In this document: positions 1,358-57,825 of the stretch, one piece after another
How the letters are laid out: each line of letters starts with the position of its first letter
Numbering within the stretch: the stretch's first letter is position 1
Assembly (NCBI RefSeq): GCF_964204645.1
Contig: NC_134031.1
Coordinates: forward strand, 186,001-250,000
Direction of reading: 5' to 3'
From: Tubulanus polymorphus
Taxonomy: Eukaryota > Nemertea > Palaeonemertea > Tubulaniformes > Tubulanidae
DNA: 64,000 bases
Notes under the pieces: model-generated
Databases searched by the model: none
Told to the model about the DNA's origin: nothing
Seen by the model: the letters and a program-made list of their open reading frames with translations, nothing else
Made by a program: the position numbers and the translations under genes

Positions 1358-3025
1358 ATGTCTGGAGATGATAAAACTGGGACTGGTACAGCTCCTCACG
1401 AGGGCAGCAGTAGAGCTGTGCCTTGTACAGCTCCTCACGAGGGCAGCAGCAGAAATGTTCAAGATTTAGTGAAGAAATTCTCTTCAGAAACAGATATCTA
1501 TGAAGATGATAAATTAACGACGTCAACATTTAAACAACAACAAATCAAATATTCTACTACAACAATAGAAACCAGTAGTACTAGTACTACATTCATCGGC
1601 ACGGCAACCAGATTAGGATCTCCGCAACAATCGATAAGACGACCGTATAAACAACATTCAATCGGTAGTATCCGTAGAAAGTTTGAGAACTCAGCAGCAG
1701 CCTGGGACCCAGCCCGCGACGCAGCCCGCAGCCCAAGGGCTGATTTACCATCTACCAGTACAGTTGTTAAAAATCAGACAACCACAGAAACGAGGAGTAC
1801 AGAGATATCAAGTGTAGCAGAGGTAGCTGAAAGCAGTCAGGTGCGCACTGTACTTGTTGAGGTAGCTGATAGTCTGAGTCAGGTACCCACTGAGACAACT
1901 GAAAGGAAGCAGGTGCAGGTGCCTGCTGATAACTCTTCAAATCGTAAATCTATTGACCTAATTCCAAATAAAAGTTTTTTACATTTCTCAAAACCGAGAC
2001 TGACTCCAAAACCAAATATAGAGAAACAGAAAGTAAATCAGAATAGCGACGCTTGTGAATATTCTCTAGAGCGGATAGTTTGGGAATCCCCGGAGTGTAG
2101 AAAAGGGGAATCCCCGAAGCAAATAGTTGGGGAATCCCCGGAGGAAGATGAGTTATACACAGATGCGACTAGTTATCTGATAACTGATGATATTTACAGT
2201 GATGCAACAAGTTTAACAATTCCCGGACTATCGAGTTTAGGGGACGAAAACCTTGAAATATCTTACGCAGATAATGTCAAGAGTGAAGAGGAAGGAAGCT
2301 GCTCCAGGGAGGAGGAGGAAAAGAGCAGCTCCAAGGAAAAGGAGGAAGATTACTATGAAATAGTGAAACTAAGAGAACAAAATAAAACTCAGTTGATAAA
2401 AAGTGAAGATAAAAATGAAGAAGAGAATGAAGAGGATATATATGATGATGTAATTATTGGTGAACTGATTCCTGCTGAAGGTAAACAGAATCGTTATTTA
2501 GATTCCTGATGTTCAGATTCATTGATTCAGTTTGTGATTGATTCATTGTGTTTGTGTGTTTAATAGAATCCACTGAAACTGGAGAAAACAATGAAGTTCG
2601 GAGGAAATCGTTTACCGGAGGGCTCCGGAAAAAAAAATTCGGTTCGAATCGTAGAAAAATGTTATCAACTCAAAGCGAACCAACGCAATCAGTAAGTGAA
2701 TCGGAGAATCAGTGATTCATTGATTGATGAATCTGTATGTAAGTCCGTAAATATAATCTGTAAAATCTCTGCACACTAGGAATAATTACTATAGGGTGTG
2801 AAATGTTTCCTAAAGCTTTTAGTTTATTCTACGTTTCAACTATATTCCTGTCATCTTCAGGAATACTTCTTTGGAGACCGTTGACAATCTAAGTCCGTGT
2901 TGTAAAGATAAATCCCTGCACGATGAGAAATGAATTTGAAATGTTTCATGGACCTCTCTGATAACACAGGGGCTCGTATTAGAATTTTGTGGGTGAACCG
3001 TAGGTTAGATCATCCATTATCCCTG

Positions 3026-3092
<67 letters not shown>

Positions 3093-6000
3093 ATAGTACC
3101 AGGGATACTATGCTAGGGACAACAGTTCACCTCCAAACTTCTAATGCGAGCCCCTGTGACTGATAATAAATACTCAATAATTGCTAGCACATTATAACTA
3201 GCTAGAAATACTTGCTCAACTCAAGGAAACATTTCAAATTTTTGTATCACGAATCTGCTGTATTTGTTCCAGGATGAAGAAAGTTTAAGTTCTGACGATG
3301 GAGAGTATGAACCTGTTGATGTCGTTCCCATGACGATCGCTCAGCTAGCAGACGTTACTCCGGATGAACAGATTTACTCCGATGTAATTTACTCCGACTC
3401 CGTGACGCAATTAAACAACAATCGATCATCATCCACGGCGACAATTATTGATAAACTCACGGCTAAACATCAATTTGATTCATCGGAGAAAAAATCAAAA
3501 ACGTCCTGGTTCATGAGTCGATTTATGAGAGGTGATATAAACTCATCGAGTTCCAGATCGACTGGTATAAACTCATCGAGTTCCAGATCGACTGATATAA
3601 ACTCATCGAGTTCCAGATCGACTGATATAAACTCATCGAGTTCCAGATCGACTGATAAAAACTCATTGAGTTCAGAGACTGAAATACTGAGTAAAACTCG
3701 AAGTTCATCTGTGCCAAATATATCTCCATCAGTTTCACCTCGATTGGATCATCATACAGCTCCAGATCAGTCCCCTTCTTCACCCCCTGATCAGCCCCCT
3801 TCTTTACCCCCTGATCAGCCCCCTTCACCCCCTGATCAGCCTCCCTGTTCACCCCCAGATCATTCCCCTTCTTCACCCCCTGACCAGTCATCTGATCAGC
3901 CCCCCTGTTTGCCCCCTAGAGGTGCCCTAACTGCTGAAAATAGCCCAAAACTTCCACCCCGTAAATCTAGTCCTGATGCATCTCCACTGGACATCAGTCC
4001 GATAACGACCCCGTGTGCGGGAACCAGTCCGAGCGGAACTCTACGTTCAGGAGGAACCAGTCCGATCCCTCCACTTCGGCGACCTAGAACATCGGATATT
4101 ACATCAAATACACTAGTGCCCCCTAGTGGTGGTTTAAATAGGTTAGTACTACATGGTTTATCTCTGTCTGTCTCTGTTTGTCAGATATAAATCTATAATA
4201 TTTGAATTTATTACAGCTGTTTTAAACTATTGGTGGCTGGTTATAGATGAATGTAAGGCTCAATGTTGCATGTTGTTTTATCATCACAGTGTGTATTCTG
4301 TTGTATTTACTGTGCAGGGTCTGGGATCGATACGAGATTTTTGTAATTAATTTATTCTGGAACAGTGAAATAGATCTCTCAGAATCCAGATTCTTGTGTT
4401 AATATTAGTTATACTTGTTTTGCATGATGATTTAGTATTAAACACTGTAGTGAGACTCAGTTTAATGTGTCCGTCCATACTGTAGTGAGACTCAGTTTAA
4501 TGTGTCCGTCCACACTGTAGTGAGACTCAGTTTAATGTGTCCGTCCACACTGTAGTGAGACTCAGTTTAATGTGTCCGTCCATACTGTAGTGAGACTCAG
4601 TTTAATGTGTCCGTCCACACTGTAGTGAGACTCAGTTTAATGTGTCCGTCCACGCTGTAGTGAGACTCAGTTTAATGTGTCCGTCCATACTGTAGTGAGA
4701 CTCAGTTTAATGTGTCCGTCCACACTGTAGTGAGACTCAGTTTAATGTGTCCGTCCACGCTGTAGTGAGACTCAGTTTAATGTGTCTCTTTCACCTGAAG
4801 AGTTGCACTGTTTACTGGTTTCAACATGCATGTTATATCAGGCAGATAATTACGGCTTATTTTGTTCATATTTCGTTTGGTTTTATATTTGTGAATTGAC
4901 ACAACTGACTGTTGATTGGACTGGATTAGCTAAATACTAGTTTTTGATAATCTGTAGTGAGAAGAGGATCTCCAGCACCAGCAGCAGCAGCAGTACTGGT
5001 ACCGGTACCGGTAATATTGATATGTTATATTTATCTCCACCAGTTCCACCTAAAACCAGTAAAACCAGTGAGTTTTCCATCTTAATTAATATTAATCATC
5101 AAACTCTGAATTACATATCGTATAATTTGTGACCCAACTATTTCAGGGCCGTCGCTGAATAGTGTGCCACTAGCTCCATCTATAGTTGGTAAGTTAAACC
5201 TCTACGTCTATCTGTCTCCGTGTACACTATAGGGTTACGATATATGATTGTGTTTGGATGTTTCAGTAGATGAAAGATTATACTATGTTCCACCTGATGG
5301 AGGAGTATCGGTATTTGTTGATAAACATGGATATATTGATATGGATCAACAAAAACCCGACAATGATGAATACCTGGACATGTGTGGAGCAGGTCGACAG
5401 GCTGATGAGTACCTGGACATGTCTGGAGCAGGTCGACAGGCTGAAGAGTACCTAGACATGTCTGGAGCAGGTCGACAGGCTGATGAGTACCTGGACATGT
5501 CTGGAGCAGGTCGACAGGCTGAAGAGTACCTAGACATGTCTGGAGCAGGTCGACAGGCTGAAGAGTACCTAGACATGTCTGGAGCAGGTCGACAGGCTGA
5601 TGAGTACCTAGACATGTCTGGAGCAGGTCGACAGGCTGAAGAGTACCTGGACATGTCTGGAGCAGGTCGACAGGCTGATGAGTACCTAGACATGTCTGGA
5701 GCAGGTCGACAGGCTGATGAGTACCTGGACATGTCTGGAGCAGGTCGACAGGCTGATGAGTACCTAGATATGGATCAACAATCAAAACTGAACAACAATA
5801 AACCGATAAATCTCCATGGCGACGATGGTTATATCGATATGGATGAAACGGTCAGGAATAAACACAACAGGTGGCGCTCATATCTATATTACTAAAACTA
5901 AACCGATTGATTTTAGACACTACAGTGTTTTAATTGAATGTTTATAATGTTACAGCGGGAGCAGTGAGGATTATATACATCCTGAATGTATCAACAATAA

Positions 6001-9000
6001 ACAACCGTTATCTCCGACGGCAACCACTCAACGTCCGTTTACCGGTATCTGGTCGATGCCTAAAACAACTGCACCAGCTGCTGCGGCTGTGCATGATCAA
6101 CAATATCTAGAAATAGTAAGTTGTACATGTGTATTTACAAATCTTTATTCTTTACGTGTATCTGTGTGATACATGTATCTGTGTGATACATGTATCTGTA
6201 TCTGTATCTGATTTATAGATTAATGATGTAAAGAGAATCAAGAGAACGTCGCGGTATCAGTCTAAATTCGGTGAGAGGGCACCGCTGTATCAGATGTATC
6301 ACGAAGACTACAGCACGCGGAAAACTCTAACGCGTCGTCCAATCAGTGAGTACCTCTCTCTCTCTACAGTGCTGCCACCTTTAATATCATCGTGCTGCCA
6401 TCTATATATCTATTATAGATTTAAAACCATCTGGTCTGATATCTGACAATTCAATTTACACCGACCCGACAATACTAGTTACTCCTGGATTACCAGTTAC
6501 TCCTGGATTAGACGATTACGACGACGTCAGTTCTAGCGATTCAGATGATTATCAATTAACTCCTGATTTAAATAAATCCACGTCTAGCGCCGATAGATTC
6601 TCTAAATGTACCGGATCAGGGTTACGTACATTATGGGCCGAGATGCCCGAGGTAGGTATAATCGTATTTAATTCGGAGTAATCGCTTGGTGCTGATTGAG
6701 TGAGGTTTAATCCCGGTTTATATTATACTATCAGGTGAAGAGCAGCGGAGTATTAACGAGTGTTGATTCGGTAAAACGTAAACTCCAGGAGTCGATGTTT
6801 GAAGTGATAACATCAGAGGCGTCTTATCTAAAGAGTTTACACATATTCCTCAATGTATTCATGTGTTCTAATGAGTTCTCTAACGAGCGTTCGTATTCCT
6901 GTATCATCAATCAACGAGATCGACACGTTTTATATTCTAATATCATCGCTGTCATGGAAACCAGTGAACGGTTCGTATTGTTAAAACCGGTTTGAATAAT
7001 CCGTCGAAGAATCCATATTTGATTTATATCGATTTACATAATTTTACAGCTCAGTACATGTTATTGCTATGCTAATTCAATGTGATTTTGATGTCAACCT
7101 CTTGTATAATGATGTAATTGTTTTATTTGCAGAATGTTGTCAGATTTAGAAACGAGATGGATAAAGGAGAATCCGGTATTATCGGATGTCTGTGATATTA
7201 TCTGTGAACACGCCAGTAAACATTTTGATGTTTATATTAAATATTGTACGAATCAAATTTATCAGTTACGAATTCTGGACAAGTTGATGTAAGTAGCAGC
7301 AGTCTGATGTCTGATGATTTAACACAATGTCTGATGATGTCTGATGATGTTACGCGATGTCTGATGATGTCTGATGATGTTATGCGATGTGTGATGATGT
7401 ATGAAGTATGGGGAGTTAATGTGTGTTTTGTCCTATATTTTAGGGATGAAAGTAAAGTATTTGCGGAGACGGTGCGCAGGTTACAAGCTCATCCCGATTG
7501 TCAGTTTCTACCGCTCAGATCATTTCTAACATTACCGATGCAACGGATTACTCGCTTGCCACTGCTGATAGATGCCATACTGAAGCGCACGACAGAAGGA
7601 ACGTCATTGTTTGAATCGGCCAGTAAAGCATTTCAAATTGTACAAAATGTAAATAGATTCAATTCTAATGTTGTGATAACATTGAACTCTGAGTTAAAAA
7701 CAAGTTTATTTTCCATGAATTAACTCTGAATCAAATCATGTTCTTGTATCTATTACTCAGAAGGTATCAATCTTAATGATACCTTGATACTAATTCGTAA
7801 GCAGTGTTTGAATGTTTAAACTGGATTTATTTATATATATTGTGTAGATTGTTCTACAATGTAACGAAGGAGCTCGAAGCATGGAACGCATGGAACAAAT
7901 GCTCGAAATTGATAAACAGCTTAACTTTTCCAAACAAAAGGTAAAAATTGACACGAAATCTTTAACAAACTGATGCTAATAATTCTGTAATTGCGATACT
8001 GAATTCTGTAATGATTTATATCGTTTAGATGATTCCATTGATTTCTTCATCGAGATATCTGATAAAGAAAGGAGAAGTCACTCGAATTCTTACCGAACAA
8101 AGATCGAAATTTGGAAGTTTATTAAAGAAATCAACGCGTACCATTCATCTGTTTCTGTTCAATGATTTACTCGTTATTGCTACCAAGAAAAGGTCGGTAT
8201 CAATGTGGCTGTTACTATAGATTCCTATCAATGTGGCTTCTTCTTATAATATCGTCATCCAATAACTTCATAGATATCGCTATTCAATTCAATTTGTTCA
8301 TTTCAACAATAACAACTACAGTTGTGATCCTTCAAGATGGCTACCTCCATCCTTTGTGACATGGTTATATGTCTTATGTGTCCTGCTCTTTTTTCAAGAT
8401 GTCTGCCTCCGTGATTCCCCCTATGACATCACACTGTGTTTTATTGTATATTTCAGCGAGGAGTCGTATTTAGTATTTGATTATTGTTCGCGTATATCTC
8501 TACACACTGAACTCATTGATGATCCCGTTAATGATCCACGTCTGCCGAGCCATCTACCGAGTAACTGCACCGAGAATCTGTTTATTCTCGTGTTACTGGA
8601 GAATCACGACAATAAAACTGTAGAATTCATCGTCTCCGTCCCGAGCCCGTAAGTTTTATCACTGTTACCTCCCCCCCCCCCCCCCCCCGTCGATCCCGAC
8701 CCTGACTCTAACCGACGTGTCTGTTGTTCGTTGCTAGGAGCGACCGAGCGAGATGGATCGAAGTTTTATCTCCGGCTGAAGAGGAGAATGAGGATGAGAA
8801 AATCTATGAAACGTGGGGTAAGATTCTATTGTTAATACGAATAGTGTTCGTTGTAGAATATGAATAATAGGTGGCTCTGTATGTTATAATTGATAGATTG
8901 TCCTCAAGTTCAAGCTGTTTACTCTTATGAGGCTCAACAACCGGATGAGATCGGTCTAGAACCATCAGACGTCATTAAAGTTCATAAAAAGATGGCTGAC

Positions 9001-9724
9001 GGTGAGTAGATTGTGACCGGTCCTGTCCAAATCCTCGTTTTAGTTTTAGTTTCCTAGCCATCTCATCCTCGCTTGCCAGGGTTTGTTTGCCTGCTGCAGC
9101 TCACTTTGTGTTTGTATGAGCTTGTGAGGGAGGCACCCCTGGCGAGGGATTTCGAGATCGGGGCTAAACATAAATTGATTCTATCCCTGATATAATTTAC
9201 AGCAGAATAAGAAATCCCAGGGGTAGGTTGTAAAATATATACCTCATTTACTTTTATCACTGCATGGAATTTGTCTAAATAAATGAAATCGAAAATTCTC
9301 TGATTTCAGGAAGATTTTACACATTTTTCTTCATGATTTGAATATAATATGCAAATATTTTATCCATCTTTGAATTAATGATATTCAAATGAACTCCACC
9401 TGTTTCAACACCCCCTGACAAAACCACCTCCCACTTCCCTTTTTGTTACCTCCCTCTCCATCTTATTATATTATTTGTTCAACATCTAACTACTGAAAAT
9501 TTACAATTTTAGTCAAAGTAGAACTGGAGATATATTAAGATATTGATTGTGTGTGTTATCTAGGTTGGTTTGAAGGAGAAAGAATCCGCGATGGTCAGAG
9601 AGGTTGGTTCCCTTCGAATTACGTCACAGAAGTCTCCAATCCGCGGCAGCGCAGACGCAACCTCGTTCAGAAACATCGTCTGCTTAACTTGGCAATGAGC
9701 CATTTAAATACTAAATATTCTTAG
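1358..9724 (+). CDS. Ephexin-family Rho guanine nucleotide exchange factor (DH-PH-SH3), 18 exons
   Basis: Exons: 1358-2480, 2567-2691, 3273-4141, 4958-5067, 5147-5188, 5267-5870, 5956-6115, 6219-6345, 6419-6651, 6735-6970, 7133-7288, 7444-7648, 7848-7940, 8029-8192, 8457-8648, 8738-8817, 8897-9001, 9564-9724. The sum is 4785 nt, or 1594 aa, and phase is consistent at every junction. The C-terminal third has the ephexin order: an LWAEMPE-type entry, DH domain (about 1145-1360, LQESMFEVITSEASYLKSL and LPMQRITRLPLLI), PH domain (about 1375-1500, PLISSSRYLIKKGEV) and SH3 (about 1508-1565, ending in GWFPSNYV). By family knowledge it catalyses GDP/GTP exchange on Rho GTPases at the cell cortex. The long N-terminus has acidic Tyr motifs, a proline-rich segment and a YxxM array. 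It is much longer than the roughly 700-870 aa vertebrate ephexins. I cannot say which vertebrate paralogue (NGEF, ARHGEF5/16/19/26) is closest. The exact start ATG is inferred. Confidence 0.93.
2929..3250. mobile_element. Foldback (MITE-like) element with a (TA)n core in RhoGEF intron 2
   Basis: Left-arm words CACAGGGGCTCG (about 2966), GGTGAAC-like, and CCCTGGTAC (about 3021) recur as reverse complements on the right: GTACCAGGGA (about 3095), GTTCACCTCC (about 3124) and GCGAGCCCCTGTG (about 3146). An outer pair, TTTGAAATGTTTC (left) and GAAACATTTCAAA (right), extends the symmetry. The centre is about 65 bp of TA dinucleotide. There is no coding capacity. The pattern fits a nonautonomous foldback DNA element; no target-site duplication was defined. 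Confidence 0.6.
3533..3672 (+). repeat. Coding 30-bp tandem repeat in RhoGEF exon 3
   Basis: About 4.5 copies of a 30-bp unit encode DINSSSSRST-type decapeptides. A proline-rich stretch of PPDQPPS-like units, plausible SH3 ligands, follows at about 3760-3920. Both are within the continuous reading frame of the RhoGEF. Confidence 0.8.
4444..4787 (+). repeat. 35-bp minisatellite in RhoGEF intron 3
   Basis: About ten near-identical copies of a 35-bp unit with the core GTAGTGAGACTCAGTTTAAT. The array lies between the exon 3 donor and the exon 4 acceptor and shows only single-base variants (CAC, CAT, CGC). Confidence 0.9.
5367..5771 (+). repeat. 39-bp coding minisatellite encoding a YLDM (YxxM) array in RhoGEF exon 6
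   Basis: Ten full copies plus a partial eleventh copy of a 39-bp unit are translated in the gene's frame as EYLDMSGAGRQAD or -E. Each unit contributes one YLDM. A GYIDMDQQ precedes the array and a GYIDMDET follows it, giving 13 YxxM motifs in about 165 residues. YxxM is the known consensus for p85 SH2 binding when the Tyr is phosphorylated; phosphorylation here is inference. Copies differ mainly at the Asp/Glu codon and at synonymous CTG/CTA. Confidence 0.9.
8671..8689 (+). repeat. Poly-C tract in RhoGEF intron 15
   Basis: An uninterrupted C run lies just after the exon 15 donor. It is simple sequence with no gene content. Confidence 0.85.
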
Positions 9725-10430: not shown

Positions 10431-10620
10431 ATTTGAACCCAGTTATTACTGACACTAATTCATTCAGAGTTGATCCTGATGCTGAATAGAGGATGTACAG
10501 GGGTGTCCCTGGTTCGAACCCAGAAGTTACTGATACTGGTTCAGAGTGATACTGATGCTGAATAGAGGATGAACACACGTGTCCGACGAGGAGAGGATAT
10601 CAAGATTTCCTAACGTTATC

Positions 10621-10857
10621 GCCATCTATTGGAATTTTGCTGAACTGACTAGTTAGCTCTTACTCGTCTCACTGAGTCTTCTTTAATCCGTTAGAATCAC
10701 ACTCGCCATCTGGTGGATATAACCATCATTAAACTGTAGTAGCATAGAAATACACCAGATGGCGAGTGTGATTTCAACCCACTGAAGAAGACTCAGTGAG
10801 ACGAGTAAGAGCTATCTATTCAGTTCAGCCAAATTCCAATAGATGGCAATCATAGCA
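10621..10857. mobile_element. Foldback MITE, copy A
   Basis: Arms of about 95 bp face each other. The left arm begins GCCATCTATTGGAATTT and contains CTCTTACTCGTCTCACTGAG; the right arm carries CTCAGTGAGACGAGTAAGAG and ends AAATTCCAATAGATGGC. The loop is about 40 bp. A half copy of the right arm sits at about 10915-10985. Confidence 0.85.
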
Positions 10858-11340
10858 TTATTATTCTATGCAGTAGAGTAATAAAATTATCTTATCTTAT
10901 CTTATCTTATCTCATTAAAGAAGACTCAGTGAGACGAGTAAGAGCAATCTAGTCAGTTCAGCCAAATTCCAATAGATGGCGATCATAGCATCATTATTCT
11001 ATGTACCAAAAGTTTTGGTTAGAGTGTAATAAACTATTTTATCTTATCTTATCTTATCTTAAACTAAGCGGATGTCCCGGGTTCGAACCCGATAATTACT
11101 GACACTGATTCAGAGTGGTCCTGATGCTGAAAAGAGGATGTACAGGGGTGTCCCGGGTTCATACCCAGTAATTACTGACACTGATTCAGAGTGGTCTTGA
11201 TGCTGAATAGAGGATGTACAGGGGTGTCACGGGTTCGAACCCAGAAGTTACTGATACTGGTTCAGAGTGGTCCTGATGCTGAATAGAGGATGTACACACG
11301 TGTACAACGAGGAGAGGATATCAAGATTTCCTAACGTTAT

Positions 11341-11569
11341 CGCCATCTATTGGAATTTGGCTGAACTGACTAGTTAGCTCTTACTCGTCTCACTGAGTCT
11401 TCTTTAATCCGTTAGAATCACACTCGCCATCTGGTGGATATAACCATCATTAAATTGTAGTAGCATAGAAATACACCAGATGGCGAGTGTGATTTCAACC
11501 CACTGAAGAAGACTCAGTGAGACGAGTAAGAGCTATCTAGTCAGTTCAGCCAAATTCCAATAGATGGCG
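11341..11569. mobile_element. Foldback MITE, copy B
   Basis: Same arm sequences and spacing as copy A, with few substitutions, beginning CGCCATCTATTGG and ending CCAATAGATGGCG. A (TTATC)n tract follows. Confidence 0.85.
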
Positions 11570-11928
11570 ATCATAGCATTATTATTCTATGCACCAAAAC
11601 TTTTGGTTAGAGTGTAATAAACTATCTTATCTTATCTTATCTTAAACTAAGCGGATGTCCCGGGTTCGAACCCGATAATTACTGACACTGATTCAGAGTG
11701 GTACTGAAGCTGAATGGATGATATAGAGGGGTGTCCCGGGTTCGAACCCAGTAATTACTGACACTGATTCAGAGTGGTCTTGATGCTGAATAGAGGATAG
11801 GATGTACAGGGGTGTCCCGGGTTCGAACCCAGAAGTTACTGATACTGGTTCAGAGTGATACTGATGCTGAATAGAGGATGAACACACGTGTCCGACGAGG
11901 AGAGGATATCAAGATTTCCTAACGTTAT

Positions 11929-12157
11929 CGCCATCTATTGGAATTTGGCTGAACTGACTAGTTAGCTCTTACTCGTCTCACTGAGTCTTCTTTAATCCGT
12001 TAGAATCACACTCGCCATCTGGTGGATATAACCATCATTAAACTGTAGTAGCATAGAAATACACCAGATGGCGAGTGTGATTTCAACCCACTGAAGAAGA
12101 CTCAGTGAGACGAGTAAGAGCTATCTAGTCAGTTCAGCCAAATTCCAATAGATGGCG
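11929..12157. mobile_element. Foldback MITE, copy C
   Basis: Third copy with the same arms. An extra right-arm half copy lies downstream at about 12225-12290, as with copy A. This shows that the flanking module was duplicated together with the element. Confidence 0.85.
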
Positions 12158-12570
12158 ATCATAGCATTATTATTCTATGCAGTAGAGTAATAAAATTATC
12201 TTATCTTATCTTATCTTATCTCATGAAAGAAGACTCAGTGAGACGAGTAAGAGCAATCTAGTCAGTTTAGCCAAATTCCAATAGATGGCGATCATAGCAT
12301 CATTATTCTATGTACCAAAAGTTTTGGTTAGAGTGTAATAAACTATTTTATCTTATCTTATCTTATCTTAAACTAAGCGGATGTCCCGGGTTCGAACCCG
12401 ATAATTACTGACACTGATTCAGAGTGGTCCTGATGCTGAAAAGAGGATGTACAGGGGTGTCCCGGGTTCATACCCAGTAATTACTGACACTGATTCAGAT
12501 TTATCCTGATGCTGAATGAGGATGTACAGGGGTGTCCCGGGTTTGAACTCAGTAATTACCAGAGTGTGAT

Positions 12571-22109: not shown

Positions 22110-25100
22110 TTATTTATATCGATATTTTTTAACGCAGTCGTTGCCGAGGTCGACAACAATGACGTGTCCGTCGCTAAGACACGATAATCCGCTCGGTCGT
22201 TTCAGTTTATCGTCGTTACTGTCGATATTAAACGCGTGTTTCCCGTCCGAACCAAACACCTGAACGAAACTCCGCCCCTTTTCTGTACGAGTGGCTAAAA
22301 CAGCTCCCGATTGGTCGACGGTTACTCCTCCGTATTGACCTTTAGTATTATTAGACTCTGATATTATTTGTTTGATATATTTACCGTCTCGTGTAAACAC
22401 CTGTAATCTGTTATCGGCAACAATGATCTCGTCTCTAACGGTTACAGCCATCGAACTGATTAGTTTAAATTGTCCCGGTTTATCTCCTTTGATTCCTATT
22501 TTACTGATTAAACGACCGTTAGGTGTAAACACCAGTAATTTACCGATACCGTTATCAGCGACTATAATCTCACCTCGACTGCTTACGGCTACGTTTATCG
22601 GCTCCACAAATTCGGCAGACGTGAATCTCTGAATTTGTTCTCCGTTTCGCGAGATCTCCGTGATATGTTTAGTACGCCAGTTGACCACTAGGAGGTTACC
22701 GGTAGGTGTCATGGTGATACCCGTACCGCTCTGATGTTCCAGTCCGGTATCCGTGATATGATGTTGAAATGTTAATTCCGCGTTCAGTATTTTGATACGA
22801 CTGTTACCCGTATCTAACACGTATATATTATCGTCGCTATCGGTTACCACATTAACCGGTTGTATAAAGTTTAAACCGTTCGATCCTCTCGTTCCTAGTT
22901 TATAAATCGGGTTGTTATGTTGCGATATATTGATAATAAACGGACTTTCTTTAATCGGTCGATCGAAGATATTGATATTGAGAGTATGTTTACCTCCCGC
23001 TAGAGGAGTATAACAGATTTTATATGTTCCGTCGTCGCAGTCCGTTACTTTCACCGGAATCAGTTCATTTCTCTCGTTTCTTAATTCTACGACGATCGGA
23101 TCACCGCCGGTAGTACGAGGGTTACCGTGGTAATCTACCGTCGATACGTGTACCGTTGATCGTAGATGCGTTACGGCTGATCTGATTTGAGCGAATGAGA
23201 GCGCCGGGTAAGTTGTACTGATACGGATACGACCGAACGAGTTTAAACCGGTTATAATTCCCTGTAACGCCGTATTGTGTTTAAACTCGAATCGTAAGAA
23301 CGCGTTCTCGCGAGGTTCCGATAATAAACTCAACGCGTCCAGTTTCTCGTTTAAATCTCCGATTTTCTTCGTGATATTTCGAACTTCAACTTGATATTGC
23401 AAACCTTCGCATTCGTTTTGAACTTTAGATTTTTCGGCTTGTATCAAATCGAGTTGTTCTTTCAGACATTTTTTCTTGTCTTCGCGTAGTTTTCGACACA
23501 TTTGTAAAACGTCGTGACGTCTTTTATCGACCGTGTTGATTAAATCCTGAAATGTGCGATCGATAGCTTCCATCGTTTTATCGACGTTCGAGTCTAATTT
23601 CGTCATCTCGTCACTAACTATTTCACACGCGTTGTTTAAATTATGGATACATAAATGTGCTTTATACAGTAATATTTCCGACATACGTTTAATAGCGATA
23701 GAGAAAGGAATAACGGTATGTTCGAGGGCTCCGCGTCCGTTATGAGTTCCGCCCGTACATAGCGTGCAGAATACAGTATCGCACGACTCGCAGAATAATA
23801 ATTCCTGATTAGAATGATTCGAACATTTCGGGATGACGTCTCGTCGCTGAGACGCCATTAAATCTAGTAGTTGATTAACGATGAAACTAGGGGGCAGCGC
23901 GGTCACTCCTCCGCGAGGTATCGTGATAGTCTCGCGACATATCGGACATCGAAACGTTCCCGTATCTCGTACCTGTGATTCGGCGATACGAATTAAACAG
24001 TTTTTACAGACGGTGTGCGAACACGTGAGTAGTTTAGGCGTGTGCTCTCCGCTATCGTACTGACATAAACACGTTCCGCACGTCAGGAAACTATCGTTGA
24101 AATCCTCATAGTTTATGGACACGGTTTCTACGAGCGTAGACGACATTCCAGATTCTGAAACGATACAAAATATAGAAAACAATTAATCATAGAATGAGCA
24201 CATCGGGCACACCTCAGAGTACACGCCCTAGTATTCAGGGCACACGCCCTAGCATTCAGGGCTCACGTCCTAGTATTCAGGGCACACGTCCTAGTATTCA
24301 GAGCACACGTCCGAGTATTCAGGGAACACGTCTTATCACTCAGATCTGCACACCTCAGGTTCAGTTTTAAATGAAACCACATTTTTGAAAAGAGGTTTTT
24401 GATACAGTAGCGTAGGATAGAAGAATGTGTTAGCAGGAATGTAATTATATTTGATTGAGGAGATGGTAAGGGGTAGAGGGAGGGATAGCACACAGTGAGA
24501 CAGGTGTAGAGGGAGGGATAGCACACAGTGAGACAGGTGTAGAATACAAACAGGTTATTACTGTACACAGTGAGAAACTGTTTAAACACCTACTCAGTAT
24601 TGATAACAATCGCATGAGGAGCTCAAGGAGGATGAGGAGCTCAAGGAGGAGGAGGAGCTCAAGGAGGATGATGTTGACGATGATGTAGAGGATGACAAGG
24701 ATGAGTTGGTTTTGATAATTCACCAGTAGCTCCCACCTCCTCGTCGCCGACCCAAGTCAGAGATAGTACGCTGGATTCATACAATGTGTGCAATCTGATT
24801 TTATTTTGTTTATCAATAATTATTTGGTTTATTCTATTTCATTGAATTAATGTTTAGAATTTCAATCAGCTCAAACAGTCAGTCAAGCTAGTGGTCAGTG
24901 TTTGTTGACATCAGGTGACCAGTTCCACCAATCACAGCTAGGGTTAGGGTTAAGGGCTGTTTGTTGATATCAGGTGACCAGCTCCAGCCAATCACAGCTA
25001 GGGTTAGGGTTAAGGGCTGTTTGTTTACATCAGGTGACCAGCTCCAGCCAATCACAACTAGGGTTAGGGTTAAGGGCTGTTTGTTTACATCAGGTGACCA

Positions 25101-47011: not shown

Positions 47012-50000
47012 ATGTCATCCACTAGTAGAGGAGGACGAGGAGGAAAGAAAAAGAGGAGAGATGACAACGGTTGGGAACAATTTGTAAGTTTATAAGTTAG
47101 AGAATACCGGTTTATATCTCCCCTGATACCCCCCCTCCCCTGATACCCCCCTCCTAGTTAGTATCACGAGCGGATATTTTCACAAACCACATCTGATTAT
47201 AAAAGCTTACCAACAACGATTAGGTGATTAACAAGAATCCCTCCCCAAATCCTGTGATCCCTCCTGCGACCCTGTGATCCCGACCCTATGATCCCTCCCC
47301 GACCCTGTGATCCCTACCCCGACCCTATGATCCCTCCCCCGACCCTATGATCCCTCCCCGACCCTGTGATCCCTCCCCCGACCCTGTGATCCCTCCCCCG
47401 ACCCTATGATCCCTCCCCCGACCCTATGATCCCTCCCCGACCCTGTGATCCCTCCCCCGACCCTGTGATCCCTCCCCCGACCCTGTGATCCCTCCCCCGA
47501 CGCTGTGATCCCTCCTGCGACCCTGTGATCCCTTTCCGACCCTGTGATCCCTTTCCGACCCTGTGATCCCTCCCCGACCCTGTGATCCCTCCTCCGACCC
47601 TATGATCCCTCCGCCGACCCTGTGATCCCTCCCCCGACGCTGTGATCCCTCCTGCGACCCTGTGATCCCTTTCCGACCCTGTGATCCCTCCCCCGACCCT
47701 GTGATCCCTCCCCCGACGCTGTGATCCCTCCTGCGACCCTGTGATCCCTTTCCGACCCTGTGATCCCTCCCCCGACCCTGTGATCCCTCCTGCAACCCTG
47801 TGATCCCTCCCCCGACCCTGTGATCCCTCCCCCGACCCTGTGATCCCTCCTGCAACCCTGTGATCCCTCCCCCGACCCTGTGATCCCTCCCCTCCCTCCC
47901 TCCCTCCCGCGACCCTGTGATCCCCTCCCTCCCCACTGATACAAAGTTATATATTTACAGGGTGGCTATATGGCTGCGAAGATTAAAAAGTTGGAAAATC
48001 AATTTACATCAGAGAAAGAAGAAACTTCTAAAAGTCATATATTTAAAGGAGTTTCTATATTTGTGAATGGATATACAAGTGAGTATTATACAGATCGATT
48101 TCACACGGTTCAACAATCACTCAATAGAGGGAGTTATCGTTGTTTTATATAGATCCATCGTCCGATGAATTGAGACGTTTAATGACGACTAACGGCGGCA
48201 GATTTATTCATTATTACGATCGTCTCAAGGTCACTCACATCATAGCCACAAATCTACCAAATAGTAAGATTAAAAACTTGAAACGTGAATTAGTGGTGAG
48301 TCCGAACTGGATAACAGACAGGTCAGTCGCACCCAGACCCAGCGTGGGTAATCTTGATACTAGATTAGATTCAATTGATATTTCAATCGATTGTTTTGTA
48401 TTTATTGTAGCGTTAAAGCAGGGAAACTGCTGCCTTACAGTGACTATCTACTCTACCGTAAACAATTTAAAAAATTAGATGTCATCAGCGCGAAAAGTAA
48501 TCCATCTAAAACTGACAACGCAGAGGACCGTGTCGTTACTACTGCATCAACTGGAAATCCTACTGTCAAATTAGACGATTCACAAACCACCAGTGTTAGT
48601 TCTAAAGTTCAAACTAGGAATCTACCGGACTCAGAAACCAGCGGTGTTAGTTCTAAAGTTCAAACTAGGAATCTACCGGACTCAGAAACCTGTGGTGTTA
48701 GTTCTAAAGTTCAAACTAGGAATCTACCGGACTCAGAAACCTGCGGTGTTAGTTCTAAAGTTCAAACTAGGAATCTACCGGACTCAGAAACCAGCGGTGT
48801 TAGTTCTAAAGTTCAAACTAGGAATCTACCGGACTCAGAAACCAGCGGTGTTAGTTCTAAAGTTCAAACTAGGAATCTACCGGACTCAGAAACCTGCGGT
48901 GTTAGTTCTAAAGTTCAAACTAGGAATCTACCGGCCTCAGAAACCAGCGGTGTTAGTTCTAAAGTTCAAACTAGGAATCTACCGGACTCAGAAACCAGCG
49001 GTGTTAGTTCTAAAGTTCAAACTAGGAATCTACCGGACTCAGAAACCAGTGGTGTTAGTTCTAAAGTTCAAACTAGGAATCTACCGGACTCAGAAACCAG
49101 TGGTGTTAGTTCTAAAGTTCAAACTAGGAATCTACCGGACTCAGAAACCAGCGGTGTTAGTTCTAAAGTTCAAACTAGGAATCTACCGGACTCAGAAACC
49201 TGTGGTGTTAGTTCTAAAGTTCAAACTAGGAATCTACCGGACTCAGAAACCTGTGGTGTTAGTTCTAAAGTTCAAAATAAGAAAACAACGGCCTCAGAAA
49301 CCTGCAGTGTCAGTTCTAAAGATACGAGATTTCTCTCAGAATTTTATGCTAATTCACGTTTGCACCATCTGTCCACTTGGGGCGCTGAGTTTAAACAATA
49401 CGTCAATAAACTACAGACAGAAAATGATCAATTCCCGGGACGTGATAAACTCAATGAGTTTGTACAATCAACTGCTGGAGAACCATGCGATAAACTCAAT
49501 GAGTTTGTACAAACAGCAGTGGCTGGAGAACGTGTTATAATGCACATTGATATGGATTGTTTCTTTGTGTCAGTTGGATTGAGATCTAGACCACATTTAA
49601 AAGGTTTGTATCTCGCTATCTTCACTTAACAGCAGGATCCAGTTTCACAGTTGTCTCTGACTCAATTTAATTCATTTGAAATAAACCTATAAGTGAACCA
49701 GTAGCAGTTTTATTGTATTTATAGGTAAACCAGTAGCAGTCACTCATTCTAAAGGAAAATCTGAATTACATAAACGAGAAGGAACAGATATTCAATATGA
49801 ACGAGCTTTATGGCAACACAGGTAGATTTAGAAAGAGCTGGAACTGAATTCCAGAGAACAGACTGAATTCAAACTGGTTTATTTTCACTGCATGTTGTTT
49901 ACTTTCAGGAAACGTTCTCGATTGTCAAAAGGTGGCGCTGCTGCTGCTGCTGTATTTGTTAATGATAATCTAGATGAAGATTCTGAGGATGAATTTCAAC

Positions 50001-53000: not shown

Positions 53001-55555
53001 AGATTTCCGTGGGGTAAGAACTCCTTCCCCGGGGGGTTACTGGGTCCGGACTCATCTTAAGGAATTTGAGATTGCAATGTTTTCTATGTTTTGTAGGTTG
53101 GAATTCAGATTCAGAAATTAGAAACTCAGAAAAATCGATCAAATATTACGAGCATTTTGAACTTTACTAGAAAATCCAGTGAAATCCCAGCTACAGCAGG
53201 TAGTGATACTAGTGGTAAACCGGTATCATCAGAATCAGATAAAACTCCCAGCAGCAGCAGCAGGAACAGCAGCAGCAGCAGGAACAGCAGCAGCAACAGC
53301 AACAGCAGCAGCAACAGCTGCAGGAAGAAGGGAATCCTGAAATTCACTACAGACAAACAACAAATAAAGTCTCATATGAAGTAAGTTTTATATTTTCATA
53401 TTAGGTTCACAAAATTGTGCAGGGGCTGCAGTTTGAAGGAATACTGCAGTAATTCACTATATCAACGATCCACTGTTTAACTGTAACTGCTGCCCCTGGT
53501 ACACACAAACCTGATTGTGTGTATTTCTGTATGTATATTTATAGAAATTCACTGCCTCCACTTCCACAGTTTAATCCACAAACTCCACATGTATCGACAA
53601 AACCTCCAACTACAGACTTCCTACTCTCTCCATCTCAGGTAATTAATCATTACATGCGCCTGTGTGACTGACATGTGCCTGTAACATGGAGTATTATATC
53701 TCTAACTAGGTCGATCTCGATGTTCTAAAAGAACTCCCTCCAGAAATTCGTCGACAAATTGAAAACGATTTGAAAAAATCGAAAAAGAATCAAGTAGAAA
53801 AATCATCGCATGAAAAACCGGCTACAAAACGTGGACTGATTCGGGATTACCAGGAAACTGCGGCCAGTGATAAACCGGGCTGTTCTCATTGGCTAACTAC
53901 ATCAACCAATCAGCAACCAGATGATGAGATCGTTGTATTATCAGAAATCGAGGAACTACCTTCATTTTCACAGGTATCCATTACACTCTGTTCTACAGCT
54001 ATAGCTGTCTATATTAGTGATGTCATAGGGGGAAATCTGTTACATTATTCATAGATCGATCCGGATTGTCTAGCAGCGCTACCTGGTGACATTCAGAGAG
54101 AACTAAACGCAGCTTACAACAATAAACAACGGTCGTCATCGGTAACTACATCAGTAGCTGGAACAGCAGCGGGAACGGGGAAGATGCAGAAATCACCGGC
54201 GAAAACAGTACAGTTACTATGGAAACCAAATGCTGAAAAATCACCCATAAAAGCTGGAACAGGAAAACGAACGACATTCAAATCACCTTCGAAGGTTCGT
54301 AGAAATACAACAATTAAAACCGGTATTTAATTTGAGTGAGACAGAGAGATGTGTTTATATTAGGGTTCACCGGGAAAGAGATACAAATCACCGAACAAAT
54401 ACAAGGTTAAAACCAGTCCGAATAAACCTGTAGAAAGAAGACGCTTTGAAGATGATCTGATGGAAGGGACAGCAGTACCAGAAGTTATCCAGCATCCTGG
54501 AGCAGTCCTCCAGCAACCTGATACTCGTCCTCCTGTTAACATATGTGGTGCAGTTACTTTGCAAGAAGTGAAAGATTTAACTTTAGAATGGATTTTAACA
54601 TCTCCTGGTGAGTTAGGTTTTTAGCTATCTGTAGAAACTCTCCGTCTCCTGGTGACTTAGTTAGGTTTTTAGCTATCTGTAGAAACTCTCCGTGTCCTGG
54701 TGAGTTAGTTAGGTTTTTAACTATCTCTAGAAACTCTCCGTGTCCTGGTGAGTTAGTTAGGTTTTTAGCTATCTGTAGAAACTCTCTGTCTCCTGGTGAG
54801 TTAGTTAGGTTTTTAGTTATCTGTAGAAACTCTCCGTCTCCTGGTGAGTTAGTTAGGTTTTTAACTATCTCTAGAAACTCTCCGTGTCCTGGTGAGTTAG
54901 TTAGGTTTTTAGCTATCTGTAGAAACTCTCCGTGTCCTGGTGAGTTAGTTAGGTTTTTAGCTATCTGTAGAAACTCTCCGTGTCCTGGTGAGTTAGATAG
55001 GTTGCTGGGTATCTGTAGGAACTCTCCGCAATATATTTAAATGGAGTTGTTTATATTTGTCAGTTCCAGAAGTTGAAGATGTTGTGAGATATCAGTGCTA
55101 TCTGGATGAACTTGTGAATGACTGTAATTTAGAACAAGTTGATCTTCTATTGCATTATCTATACAGGTAACTCTTTCTCCTCCCTCTCCCTCCCTCTCCC
55201 TCCCTCTCCCTCCCTCTCCCTCCCTCTCCCTCCCTCTCCCTCCCTCCCTCTCCCTCCCTCTCCCTCTCCCTCTCCCTCTCCCTCTCCCTCTCCCTCTCCC
55301 TCTCCCTCTCCCTCTCCCTCTCCCTCTCCCTCTCCCTCTCCCTCTCCCTCTCCCTCTCCCTCTCCCTCCCTCTTGCTCATCTCTCTTTTCATCAGTTGTG
55401 TAATGATTATTATCTATTTTAGGAGATGTAGTCGGCTTGATTCTGAGGTGTGGATTCAGTGTTTAACTGATATCATTAAATCAGTACAGAACAGTGTTCT
55501 TATTAAACATGGTGCTAAATTAAAACTCAAATTTAACTCATCAATCGGAAATTAA
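47012..55555 (+). CDS. REV1: DNA repair protein REV1 (BRCT, Y-family polymerase, UBMs, CTD), 19 exons
   Basis: Exons: 47012-47083, 47961-48078, 48153-48321, 48411-49603, 49725-49821, 49909-50119, 50360-50484, 50563-50717, 50815-50934, 51930-52150, 52555-52699, 52883-53013, 53097-53380, 53545-53638, 53710-53973, 54055-54294, 54364-54607, 55064-55166, 55423-55555. The sum is 4119 nt, or 1372 aa (human about 1251), with consistent phases. The BRCT domain is at about 45-135 ([18 protein letters not shown]). The Y-family core spans about 495-920 with the metal-binding HIDMDCFF and SCDE at about 671-674, and the signatures [16 protein letters not shown] and KEFGPKTGQ. Two ubiquitin-binding motifs ([22 protein letters not shown]) and the C-terminal domain that binds other TLS polymerases and REV7 follow. 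It is a deoxycytidyl transferase and scaffold for translesion synthesis. A 51-bp coding minisatellite explains most of the extra length. Confidence 0.96.
47120..47930 (+). repeat. 20-bp minisatellite CGACCCTGTGATCCCTCCCC filling REV1 intron 1
   Basis: About 38 copies with TGTGATCC/TATGATCC and CCCCCGA/TTTCCGA variants, occupying almost the whole intron between 47084 and 47960. Confidence 0.93.
48590..49285 (+). repeat. 51-bp coding minisatellite in REV1 exon 4
   Basis: About 13-14 copies of a 51-bp unit encode a 17-residue repeat, [17 protein letters not shown], with Ser/Cys variation at the second position (TCGVSSK). It is in frame with both the BRCT exon and the catalytic exon and is Ser/Thr-rich and low in hydrophobics, so probably disordered. 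Confidence 0.93.
50221..50390 (+). repeat. 34-bp repeat made from the 5' border of REV1 exon 7
   Basis: Copies of AAGGCTGGTTTAAGGAATGG start at 50221, 50255, 50289, 50323 and 50357. The last is the true exon border (exon starts 50360, Ala-Gly-Leu-Arg-Asn-Gly-Met). The upstream four repeat the acceptor AAG plus the first 20-odd exon bases. Confidence 0.88.
50942..51752 (+). repeat. 49-bp minisatellite in REV1 intron 9
   Basis: About 16-17 copies of a 49-bp unit, CAGTAACAGAGACCAGGGGC, TACAGGACCCAGTTCCACAG and TTCTGTGTA. It begins within ten bases of the exon 9 donor. Confidence 0.93.
52200..52542 (+). repeat. 20-bp minisatellite GATCATTGAATCAGTTTTCT in REV1 intron 10
   Basis: About 17 copies with TTTT/TTTC and CATT/CGTT/CAAT variants; the array ends about 12 bp before the exon 11 acceptor. 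Confidence 0.92.
52733..52855 (+). repeat. CTATCTGTCAC/TGTCTGACGT repeat in REV1 intron 11
   Basis: Imperfect copies of CTATCTGTCAC and CTGTCTGACGTCTATCTGTC words. Confidence 0.8.
54601..55030 (+). repeat. 48-bp minisatellite made from the REV1 exon 17 donor border
   Basis: The exon 17 end and donor, TCTCCTG/GTGAGTTAG, are repeated about nine times in a 44-48 bp unit with GGTTTTTAGCTATCTGTAGA and AACTCTCCG. Each unit has a donor-like CCTGGTGAGTTAG. The array runs to near the exon 18 acceptor. Confidence 0.9.
55172..55375 (+). repeat. (CCCTCT)n pyrimidine tract in REV1 intron 18, copy 1
   Basis: CCCTCCCTCT then pure CTCCCT hexamers. The equivalent tract in the duplicate (57346-57650) is about 96 bp longer. 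Confidence 0.92.
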
Positions 55556-55586: not shown

Positions 55587-57237
55587 TCAGTTTATTTTAT
55601 TTTATTTTATTAATATTGAGTCTAGTTCTACAGTGGTTTGGAGTATGTTGGACAAGTTGCAGTATAGCACTAGGACTCTGGAGTCAGAGTGCAGCCTCGG
55701 ACCCCAGTCACTGATCAGCCAATCCTGACCAGTCCATCACTGAACCGGGGCTGCAGTTGCTCAAAACTGGCAGATAAATACCACAGAAACAATGAACTTT
55801 TAATTGTCACTGTGTCAACTGTTTACAATTCAATAGTGATTTGGCTTCAAGCAAAATGCGGGAGTCAGTGGTGGCCCCTTTGAATTGGCGTCCCGTCGAC
55901 TGTAGTAATATCTACAGACTCCGAATCAAAGATCGTCTGAAAGAAAAGTGAGATTCTCATCTATGAATGGTGGCTTTAAAGTCTTAAATCAAGAGAATGG
56001 TTTTATTAGCATTTGAAACAATACAGCCCGCCACTGAAAGAATAGTAATCTCAACCGTCTAGTGCTGCCCCTATGTATAACGATAGCGGAAAAAACGTGA
56101 ACTAACATAATACTCGCTTGCCAGACACTTTTTACGGCCGTACTGGACAAACTATTTACCGACTTGCGGGCCGGAATCAGAGAAAATTCTCAAACTCTTT
56201 GAAAACAGCACTGAAACTAATCAACTGGTGATTCTTATATAAAAGAAGAGTTTTAAAAGAATAAATTTGTATCAGGGTATTTCTAGTGAGGTCGGCGATG
56301 ATATAATGATAATTCATTGGTAAGCAATGGTTTTTGCTAATAAATAGAATAAAGTAACCCAAAAAGATATAGAAATACCATCTAAAATTCATTATATCAT
56401 ATTGTATTAGAATAAGGCGACAAACTGATCCGTATTGTAGGAAATTCATATTCCTCCGGCAGTGCATTATTATTTTAGTTCACAGAAATTCCACTATCGT
56501 TATTCATAGGGGCAGCACCGTACGGTTGAGATCTAACACAGCCTAGCCATTCTACTGTGGCATGTGAGTAGTACAGCTATTTTTTAAATGTCAAAATTCA
56601 TGTATTATTCAACAGAAATGAAAGTTCAAAAATAAAAAAGAGCACTTTTCAGCACTAATTGACATCTTAATGGAAACAAACTGTCGATGATCGAATACAG
56701 TTATTCGCTATGGGTCTAGAAACCACTGACCCTCCCCAGCTGGACCTGATACAGCCATGAATCCATCAAATAAAAGACATTGTTTTTTTACATATAACAA
56801 TTTATAATTCAGTGAATTCCATACATTATTATGATCAATGTTTTACAGTTTTTGTGTTTCTACCACAAACAATTATTTAATTACATTTAATTTATTTTTT
56901 ATCTTTTTTTTAAATTATTATTTACATGATTAATTTTACACATGATATCAATTAATTAATATTTTAAAAACATCACTTTCTCAAAATGAAGGAAGTGATT
57001 TATTTCTATTCTATTCCAATTGTTAGTTAGGTTTTTAGCTATCTGTAGAAACTCTCTGTGTCCTGGTGAGTTAGATAGGTTTTTAGCTATCTGTAGAAAC
57101 TCTCCGTGTCCTGGTGAGTTAGATAGGTTTTTAACTATCTGTAGAAACTCTCCGTCTCCTGGTGAGTTAGATAGGTTGCTGGGTATCTGTAGGAACTCTC
57201 CGCAATATATTTAAATGGAGTTGTTTATATTTTCCAG

Positions 57238-57825
57238 TTCCAGAAGTTGAAGATGTTGTGAGATATCAGTGCTATCTGGATGAACTTGTGAATGACTGTA
57301 ATTTAGAACAAGTTGATCTTCTATTGCATTATCTATACAGGTAACTCTTTCTCCTCCCTCTCCCTCCCTTTCCCTCCCTCTCTCCCTCCCTCTCCCTCCC
57401 TCTCTCCCTCCCTCTCTCCCTCCCTCTCCCTCTCCCTCTCCCTCTCCCTCTCCCTCTCCCTCTCCCTCTCCCTCTCCCTCTCCCTCTCCCTCTCCCTCTC
57501 CCTCTCCCTCTCCCTCTCCCTCTCCCTCTCCCTCTCCCTCTCCCTCTCCCTCTCCCTCTCCCTCTCCCTCTCCCTCTCCCTCTCCCTCTCCCTCTCCCTC
57601 TCCCTCTCCCTCTCCCTCTCCCTCTCCCTCTCCCTCTCCCTCTCCCTCATCCCTCTTTTCATCAGTTGTGTAATGATTATTATCTATTTTAGGAGATGTA
57701 GTCGGCTTGATTATGAGGTGTGGATTCAGTGTTTAACTGATATCATTAAATCAGTACAGAACAGTGTTCTTATTAAACATGGTGCTAAATTAAAACTCAA
57801 ATTTAACTCATCAATCGGAAATTAA
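57238..57825 (+). pseudogene. Duplicate of REV1 exons 18-19 (partial gene copy or alternative 3' exons)
   Basis: 57238-57340 repeats exon 18 and 57693-57825 repeats exon 19, with intact acceptor (TTTCCAG), donor (CAG/GTAACT), second acceptor (TTTTAG), stop codon and polyadenylation signal. The one coding change noticed is Ser to Tyr (TCT to TAT) in RLDSEVW. It has no upstream exons or promoter of its own. It may be inert, or exon 17 may splice to it, or exon 18 of copy 1 may splice to exon 19 of copy 2; all of these keep the frame because the phases are identical. Confidence 0.8.
57346..57650 (+). repeat. (CCCTCT)n pyrimidine tract, duplicate copy
   Basis: Almost pure CTCCCT hexamers for about 230 bp after an irregular start. 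Confidence 0.93.

What the first reader, a model, noticed from the sequence alone, without database searches (positions are those of the whole stretch)
5340..5850. A RhoGEF with a minisatellite-encoded array of 13 YxxM motifs (putative PI3K docking array)
Seen: a 39-bp tandem repeat in exon 6 is in frame and encodes EYLDMSGAGRQAD/E about ten and a half times, with YIDM on both sides. Known: phospho-YxxM is the consensus for the SH2 domains of PI3K p85, and IRS/Gab-type scaffolds use several copies. Ephexins are regulated by Tyr phosphorylation, but I know of no ephexin with such an array. Inference: the N-terminus acts as a multivalent, copy-number-variable phosphotyrosine platform that couples Rho exchange to PI3K. 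The acidic residues around each Tyr suit tyrosine kinases.
Basis: partly seen in the sequence, partly recalled or inferred. Interest (0 to 1): 0.8.

Follow-up and report, generated by a model that had tools for sequence, protein, structure and literature searches.

The report
Ephexin gene with repeated YxxM motif
In an unidentified animal, a gene for a protein that switches on Rho GTPases carries a short DNA repeat that spells the same likely enzyme-docking signal over and over, thirteen times with its flanks, so that changes in repeat number could change how much PI3-kinase the protein can hold; the pattern is real, the function is still a prediction.

Summary
An 18-exon gene (window 1358-9724, +) encodes a predicted 1,594-residue protein with DH, PH and SH3 domains, closest by far among solved structures to human ARHGEF16/ephexin4. 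Exon 6 carries 10.5 copies of a 39-bp repeat in frame: 11 EYLDM plus two flanking YIDM, 13 YxxM. The 38 tyrosines outside exon 6 give none. LYQMY matches the autoinhibitory motif of human WGEF (VLYQEY). The genome holds one detected ephexin, one detected p85 locus with both SH2 domains, and one detected Eph-type ligand-binding domain.

Three points temper the claim. Tandem arrays fill this stretch (31% of the window; 4% of 13 distant samples), and a random open 39-bp unit encodes YxxM in about 1% of trials. PI3K scaffolding by an ephexin is already reported (ARHGEF5). Human ephexin4, the closest solved relative, is reported not to be phosphorylated by Src.

In favour: both flanking YIDM lie beside the array, one exactly in register, keeping Y-x-D-M through different codons; 13-residue spacing suits two-site p85 binding; YLDMS resembles the PDGFR site YMDMS. 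Best reading: an ancestral p85-docking segment amplified by minisatellite turnover. No phosphorylation, binding, expression or copy-number variation is shown.

The parts
1358..9724 (+). Ephexin-type RhoGEF gene, 18 coding exons, 1,594 codons (model made by eye from splice sites and frames; no RNA support)
   Evidence: splice model with consistent phases and AG/GT at internal borders; RhoGEF, SH3 and SOS1/NGEF-like PH domains
5267..5870 (+). Exon 6 (604 bp, residues ~757-957) holding all 13 YxxM motifs; length 1 mod 3, so skipping it alone breaks the frame
5332..5370 (+). Left flanking unit YIDMDQQKPDNDE, 13 codons, in register with the array but diverged
5371..5760 (+). Ten 39-bp units YLDM(S/C)GAGRQA(D/E)E, mean pairwise identity 96.7%
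5761..5799 (+). Last unit YLDMDQQSKLNNN; shares the 15-mer GATATGGATCAACAA with the left flanking unit
5830..5841 (+). Right flanking YIDM (context DDGYIDMDE), 23 codons after the last YLDM
6219..6345 (+). Exon 8, with LYQMY (residues 1034-1038) matching the ephexin autoinhibitory motif
   Evidence: human WGEF NSVLYQEY in PMC11076555 (passages)
6735..9724 (+). Exons 10-18: DH, PH, SH3
   Evidence: Pfam; ARHGEF16 structures 7cso/7csp, 326 bits
3533..3673 (+). In-frame 30-bp repeat in exon 3 (DINSSSSRST)
3762..3887 (+). Proline-rich repeat in exon 3, period 24 (also reported as 45), reading PPDQPPxxP

Best explanation
The gene is the animal's only detected ephexin. Its N-terminal region, just upstream of the presumed tyrosine-regulated autoinhibitory motif, carries a p85-docking segment. 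An older set of Y-(I/L)-D-M-D motifs was already there; minisatellite turnover then amplified one of them into 10-11 near-identical copies. When a tyrosine kinase (Src or Eph type) phosphorylates the segment, pairs of pYxDM 13 residues apart engage the two SH2 domains of p85, so that several class IA PI3K molecules can be held on one GEF. PIP3 is then made where Rho is activated. Shown: predicted gene structure, frame, motif count, the LYQMY motif, a p85 with two SH2 domains in the same genome. Inferred: order of events in the array, phosphorylation, p85 binding, PI3K coupling, effect of copy number.
For: Frame and exon fixed by an 18-exon model; ephexin identity, ARHGEF16 326 bits against 102 for the next group; DH/SH3/PH domains; LYQMY at 1034 as human WGEF NSVLYQEY. 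One p85 locus: iSH2 in two exon matches (in its 14 control genomes one below-cut-off ring), nSH2 136 bits and cSH2 101 bits in the best domain alignments to human p85-alpha, FLVR/FLLR arginine kept in both. One Ephrin_lbd match. No second ephexin among the scored candidates. 13 of 13 YxxM in exon 6, 0 from 38 Tyr outside it. Flanking motifs keep Y, D and M through 4 of 12 nucleotide differences each; neutral simulation gives 0.2-0.6% (it assumes common ancestry, and the flanks were noticed because they match). Spacing 13: p85 is said to bind pairs 10-30 residues apart (PMC6937578); the PDGFR test peptide holds pYMDMS...pYVPM (PMC11076043). ARHGEF5 Src/PI3K-binding region.
Against: No orthologue could be compared, so conservation of the motif is untested. 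Arrays are abundant here: 34 minisatellites in the window and 30.5% of its bases in arrays; the one intronic array of this gene that was measured is as homogeneous as this one (35-bp array 97.9%, this one 96.7%). One YxxM-bearing unit among many arrays is not improbable. The simulation is open to ascertainment bias. Src is reported to phosphorylate SGEF but not Ephexin4 (PMC4954681, start of abstract in the listing), and Ephexin4 is the closest solved relative. In the ARHGEF5 paper 'p85' occurs 0 times, so whether its PI3K binding uses pYxxM was not seen. The +1 Leu/Ile is acceptable rather than ideal for p85 (recalled).
Confidence: 0.48

Rival explanations
1. Neutral amplification: a minisatellite arose in a disordered, tolerant exon; the unit happened to include one YxDM (perhaps a single real docking site), and the extra copies have no consequence beyond length.
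For: High array density, 30.5% of bases in the window and 22% in 66 kb of C7 neighbours against 4.4% in 13 distant 10-kb samples. Other in-frame coding arrays without tyrosine motifs: the exon 3 repeats of the same gene and a 51-bp x14.5 array in a REV1 exon. Homogeneity no greater than in the 35-bp intronic array; all four combinations of the two common variable sites occur, as expected of unit exchange. Chance of YxxM per open unit about 1%.
Against: Two YIDM outside the repeat, one of them outside the 39-bp register, flank it, while the 38 tyrosines outside exon 6 give no YxxM. Leu and Asp codons vary only synonymously in 11 YLDM copies, though so little varies that this is weak.
Confidence: 0.37
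2. Phosphotyrosine array for another SH2 protein (for example SHP2 or PLC-gamma, which also take an aliphatic +1 and hydrophobic +3), with p85 not the main partner.
For: Y-(L/I)-D-M also fits loosely the pY-hydrophobic-x-hydrophobic class (recalled); the N-terminus holds many other acidic-context tyrosines.
Against: Met at +3 in 13 of 13 motifs is the p85 consensus (for YXXM; specificity of the others recalled); YxDMS matches the PDGFR p85 site.
Confidence: 0.1
3. Unphosphorylated use: YxxM as a YxxPhi adaptor-binding motif, or the array as a mere spacer or condensate-forming tract.
For: YxxM satisfies YxxPhi (recalled); tyrosines of IRS-1 YXXM motifs contribute to phase separation (PMC9240053, passages).
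Against: No Pfam domain in the seven other N-terminal exons scanned; no membrane-spanning part was noticed, though none was formally predicted; acidic flanks favour kinases (recalled).
Confidence: 0.05

Closest known systems
ARHGEF5 (ephexin3/Tim)
   Same: ephexin with tyrosine-regulated autoinhibitory helix (Y1097, Y1100); reported Src/PI3K-binding region (residues 583-902) N-terminal to the helix, and reported PI3K scaffold (PMC5047960 and PMC6406967, passages)
ARHGEF16 (ephexin4)
   Same: closest solved sequence across DH-PH-SH3 (7cso, 326 bits)
   Different: N-terminus not compared; reported not to be phosphorylated by Src (PMC4954681, start of abstract); no array known to me (recalled)
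IRS-1
   Same: C-terminal region, suggested to be disordered, with nine YXXM motifs that recruit p85 (mouse; PMC9240053, passages)
   Different: no RhoGEF domain; motifs dispersed and not minisatellite-encoded (recalled)
BCAP and PDGFR p85 sites
   Same: p85 is said to bind phosphotyrosine pairs 10-30 residues apart; two pY in the PDGFR peptide
   Different: few motifs (two in the PDGFR peptide, three C-terminal ones named for BCAP), not an array; no GEF
CagA EPIYA segments
   Same: repeatable tyrosine motifs in a disordered tail (listing and starts of abstracts only); their number varies between strains (recalled)
   Different: a bacterial protein of unrelated sequence; SHP2/Csk rather than p85 (recalled)

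Membership tests
Ephexin subfamily of Dbl RhoGEFs | DH-PH followed by SH3 | tested here: met
   Pfam RhoGEF 1.7e-37, SH3_1 5.1e-14, SOS1_NGEF_PH 5.2e-07
Ephexin subfamily of Dbl RhoGEFs | closest relatives are ephexins | tested here: met
   ARHGEF16 326 bits, next group intersectin 102 bits among PDB chains (best 60 of 210 matches shown); only ephexins with a solved chain could compete
Ephexin subfamily of Dbl RhoGEFs | autoinhibitory LYQxY motif N-terminal to DH | tested here: met
   LYQMY at residues 1034-1038 against NSVLYQEY of human WGEF; four of five residues identical, function not tested
Ephexin subfamily of Dbl RhoGEFs | regulation by Eph receptors / Src; GEF activity on a Rho GTPase | not testable with these tools
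   one Ephrin_lbd match exists in the genome; interaction and activity need experiments
IRS/Gab-type PI3K scaffold | several YxxM in a disordered region | tested here: met
   13 YxxM; disorder inferred from composition only
IRS/Gab-type PI3K scaffold | N-terminal PH (and PTB) targeting module as in IRS proteins | tested here: not met
   no Pfam domain in seven N-terminal exons scanned one by one, so a domain split over exons could be missed; two weak, below-cut-off matches to unrelated families in exon 6; exon 5 (42 bp) not scanned
IRS/Gab-type PI3K scaffold | phosphorylation-dependent p85 binding | not testable with these tools
   a p85 locus with both SH2 domains exists

The most novel reading that the evidence does not exclude
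A hypervariable coding minisatellite sets the number of PI3K molecules that the animal's only detected ephexin can hold, a genetically tunable gain control joining Rho activation and PIP3 production, possibly differing between individuals and populations.
Probability: 0.17. Interest if true: 0.82.

Novelty: new variant of a known kind. Interest (0 to 1): 0.5.

Why it matters
SH2-docking platforms such as IRS-1, BCAP or PDGFR carry from two to about nine YXXM sites. Here thirteen p85-type motifs sit in a RhoGEF, eleven of them on a mutable 39-bp unit, in a genome with one detected ephexin and one detected p85 locus. If it works as inferred, repeat number would be a natural titration of docking valency, and the effect of valency on PI3K signalling could be tested with natural alleles. 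It also illustrates how minisatellite turnover can multiply a short linear motif.

Tried and rejected
Orthologue comparison: no collection of animal genomes is on hand (the named collections hold prokaryotes, viruses, plasmids and metagenomes; the cap for metagenome scans was 0), and G000 has no relatives held, so the most useful test could not be made. I ran no scan of viral contigs, genome contigs, phages, plasmids or E. coli. Alternative haplotype: the repeat peptide matches only the window's own locus (9 candidates scored), so no second allele was found. Species: not identified, and not pursued.

IRS-type relatives in the genome: the PTB-family query (PF02174) did not complete. Telomere at the C7 end: the first 600 bases of C7 that I read show no telomere-like repeat by eye, so 'subtelomere-like' rests on position (186-250 kb from the contig end) and array density, not on a telomere. 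Structure prediction: not run, because the array region looks disordered and a spliced protein may not count as the window's own. NCBIfam, a prokaryotic library, gave no family for DH-PH-SH3.

Period-multiple-of-three as proof of coding: weak. In this gene the exonic arrays have periods 30, 24 (45), 39 and 18, the intronic ones before the stop codon 2, 35, 17 and 30 (10), but 28 of 55 minisatellites in the sample have periods divisible by three anyway.

Not in print, as far as searched: 0 papers with both 'ephexin' and 'YxxM'; one paper with ephexin, tyrosine phosphorylation and 'PI3K p85' (listing only); no coding-repeat SH2 platform of an animal among the 3 papers listed or the 10 listed of 1,094. 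These searches cover the open-licence PMC library only. Kuroiwa 2011 and Yohe 2008, primary papers for ARHGEF5/Tim, are not held; I know their content only as cited in PMC5047960, PMC6406967 and PMC8260174. All papers cited were seen as passages found by term, or as listings where so marked; none was read whole.

Full report
What is there. The window lies at C7:186001-250000 of a 268-Mb genome in 77 contigs with no name given. A gene on the + strand, 1358-9724, can be spliced from 18 exons with AG/GT at every internal border and matching phases throughout; it gives 1,594 codons and one stop. The model was made by eye and has no RNA support; the start codon is the weakest part. The last nine exons encode a RhoGEF (DH) domain, an SOS1/NGEF-like PH domain and an SH3 domain. 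Among PDB chains the best match is human ARHGEF16 (ephexin4), 326 bits, followed by intersectins at 102 bits. No Pfam domain was found in seven other N-terminal exons scanned one by one; exon 6 gave two weak, below-cut-off matches to unrelated families, which I take to be repeat artefacts.

The array. Exon 6 (5267-5870) contains ten complete 39-bp units, TAC CTR GAC ATG TST GGA GCA GGT CGA CAG GCT GAW GAG in IUPAC code, followed by a last YLDM, with YIDM before and after. TRF reports 10.5 copies at 5364-5772. There are 13 YxxM motifs, their tyrosines at residues 779-945. Mean pairwise identity of the ten units is 96.7%; three sites vary among them, and both Leu codons occur with both Asp and Glu codons, all four combinations, as unit exchange would give.

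Traces of an older segment. The left flanking motif begins exactly one unit (13 codons) before the first array unit and reads YIDMDQQKPDNDE; the last unit reads YLDMDQQSKLNNN, and the two share the 15-mer GATATGGATCAACAA. The right YIDM stands 23 codons after the last YLDM, out of register. I infer that two or three Y-(I/L)-D-M-D motifs were present before the SGAGRQADE-type unit expanded. Y, D and M are kept between flanks and array through 4 differences in 12 nucleotides; random substitution keeps them in 0.2-0.6% of simulations. This assumes common ancestry and is biased, because the flanks were noticed for matching. Two of four non-array tyrosines of exon 6 are YxxM, against none of 38 elsewhere.

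How special is the repetition? In a sample of 260 kb (the window, 66 kb of neighbouring C7 and 13 distant 10-kb pieces) there are 55 minisatellites (period 12-100, at least 5 copies): 34, 16 and 5 respectively. Arrays of all kinds cover 30.5%, 22.1% and 4.4% of the bases. Thirty-six of the 55 are open in at least one of six frames, and one, this one, encodes three or more YxxM. Random open 39-bp units encode YxxM in 0.6-1.1% of trials; draws of 13 codons from this gene's own N-terminal region do so in 0.35%, and 0 of 906 real 13-residue windows of that region do. I did not compute a genome-wide expectation; my rough judgement is that some such unit in some exon is likely by chance, and that its place in the ephexin, between two other YxDM, is what raises interest. 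Coding repeats are not confined to this exon: exon 3 has two, and a REV1 exon at 48.4-49.6 kb carries a 51-bp x14.5 in-frame array next to conserved REV1 sequence.

Partners in the genome. One PI3K p85 locus was found on C2 (iSH2, two exon matches; of its 14 control genomes one rang, below the cut-off). In the 10 kb around it lie exons reading as nSH2 and cSH2, which align to human p85-alpha at 136 and 101 bits with the FLVR-type arginine kept. One Ephrin ligand-binding domain match was found on C7. A search with the DH-PH-SH3 protein found nine exon matches at this locus and twelve weaker matches elsewhere (41 bits or less) to SH3 or partial DH stretches, so no second ephexin was detected among the 40 candidates scored.

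Mechanism. Ephexins are held off by an N-terminal helix whose tyrosine Src phosphorylates, as reported for mammalian ephexin1 and ephexin3 and for C. elegans EPHX-1 (PMC6406967 and PMC8260174, passages); human WGEF has NSVLYQEY (PMC11076555, passages). Against this, Src is reported to phosphorylate SGEF but not Ephexin4, the closest solved relative here (PMC4954681, start of abstract). This protein has LYQMY at 1034-1038; the last YxxM tyrosine is 945. p85 is said to bind paired phosphotyrosines 10-30 residues apart (PMC6937578, passages), tandem pYXXM motifs to activate PI3K more than single ones (PMC3613897, passages), and the PDGFR peptide used for two-site binding holds pYMDMS (PMC11076043, passages), close to YLDMS here. 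With units 13 residues apart, 13 motifs could in principle seat up to six p85 molecules (arithmetic, not a measurement). The same eLife paper reports that pY docking and Rac1-GTP act together on PI3K-beta, which would suit a GEF that also docks PI3K; whether this ephexin acts on Rac, RhoG or RhoA is unknown. ARHGEF5 gives the nearest precedent: a region whose deletion is described as removing the Src/PI3K-binding domain, and a description as a PI3K scaffold (PMC5047960, passages); the passages do not say that YxxM motifs are used.

Verdict. The sequence claim holds in every part that could be checked except a start coordinate off by eight bases. The functional claim is plausible and specific but untested, and the neutral rival is serious. 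I rate p85 docking in some form at about one half, and valency set by copy number at about one sixth.

Noticed in passing
48379-49629 (+): An exon of a REV1 DNA-repair polymerase gene (human REV1 3gqc, 74 bits) carries a 51-bp in-frame array, 14.5 copies, encoding [17 protein letters not shown], shortly before conserved REV1 sequence.
   Followed up: partly
whole window; L004-L023: Tandem arrays cover 30.5% of the window and 22% of 66 kb of C7 neighbours, but 4.4% of 13 distant 10-kb samples; GC also tends to be higher near this contig end.
   Followed up: partly
62173-63933 (-): A short MAP2K7-like kinase stretch (PERIDP...DVWSLGISLV, 52 bits to human MKK7) runs into a long array rich in TGTHQP / SYRDPPAH; probably exon then intron.
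   Followed up: partly
22110-24182 (-): Single-exon TRIM-type protein: RING, B-box, filamin and NHL repeats.
   Followed up: no
54611-55555 and 57022-57825: Two similar stretches, each a 48-bp array followed by a CTCCCT-type hexamer array and an ORF ending alike; looks like a local duplication.
   Followed up: no
10440-12560: Repeated ~76-bp units with a tRNA B-box-like GGTTCGAACCC and TTATC pentamer runs; SINE-like by eye.
   Followed up: no
1358-6651 (+): Beyond YxxM, the ephexin N-terminus has many acidic-context tyrosines, several of the form (I/L)Y(S/T)D (residues 267, 280, 451, 456, 1067), perhaps a second docking class.
   Followed up: no
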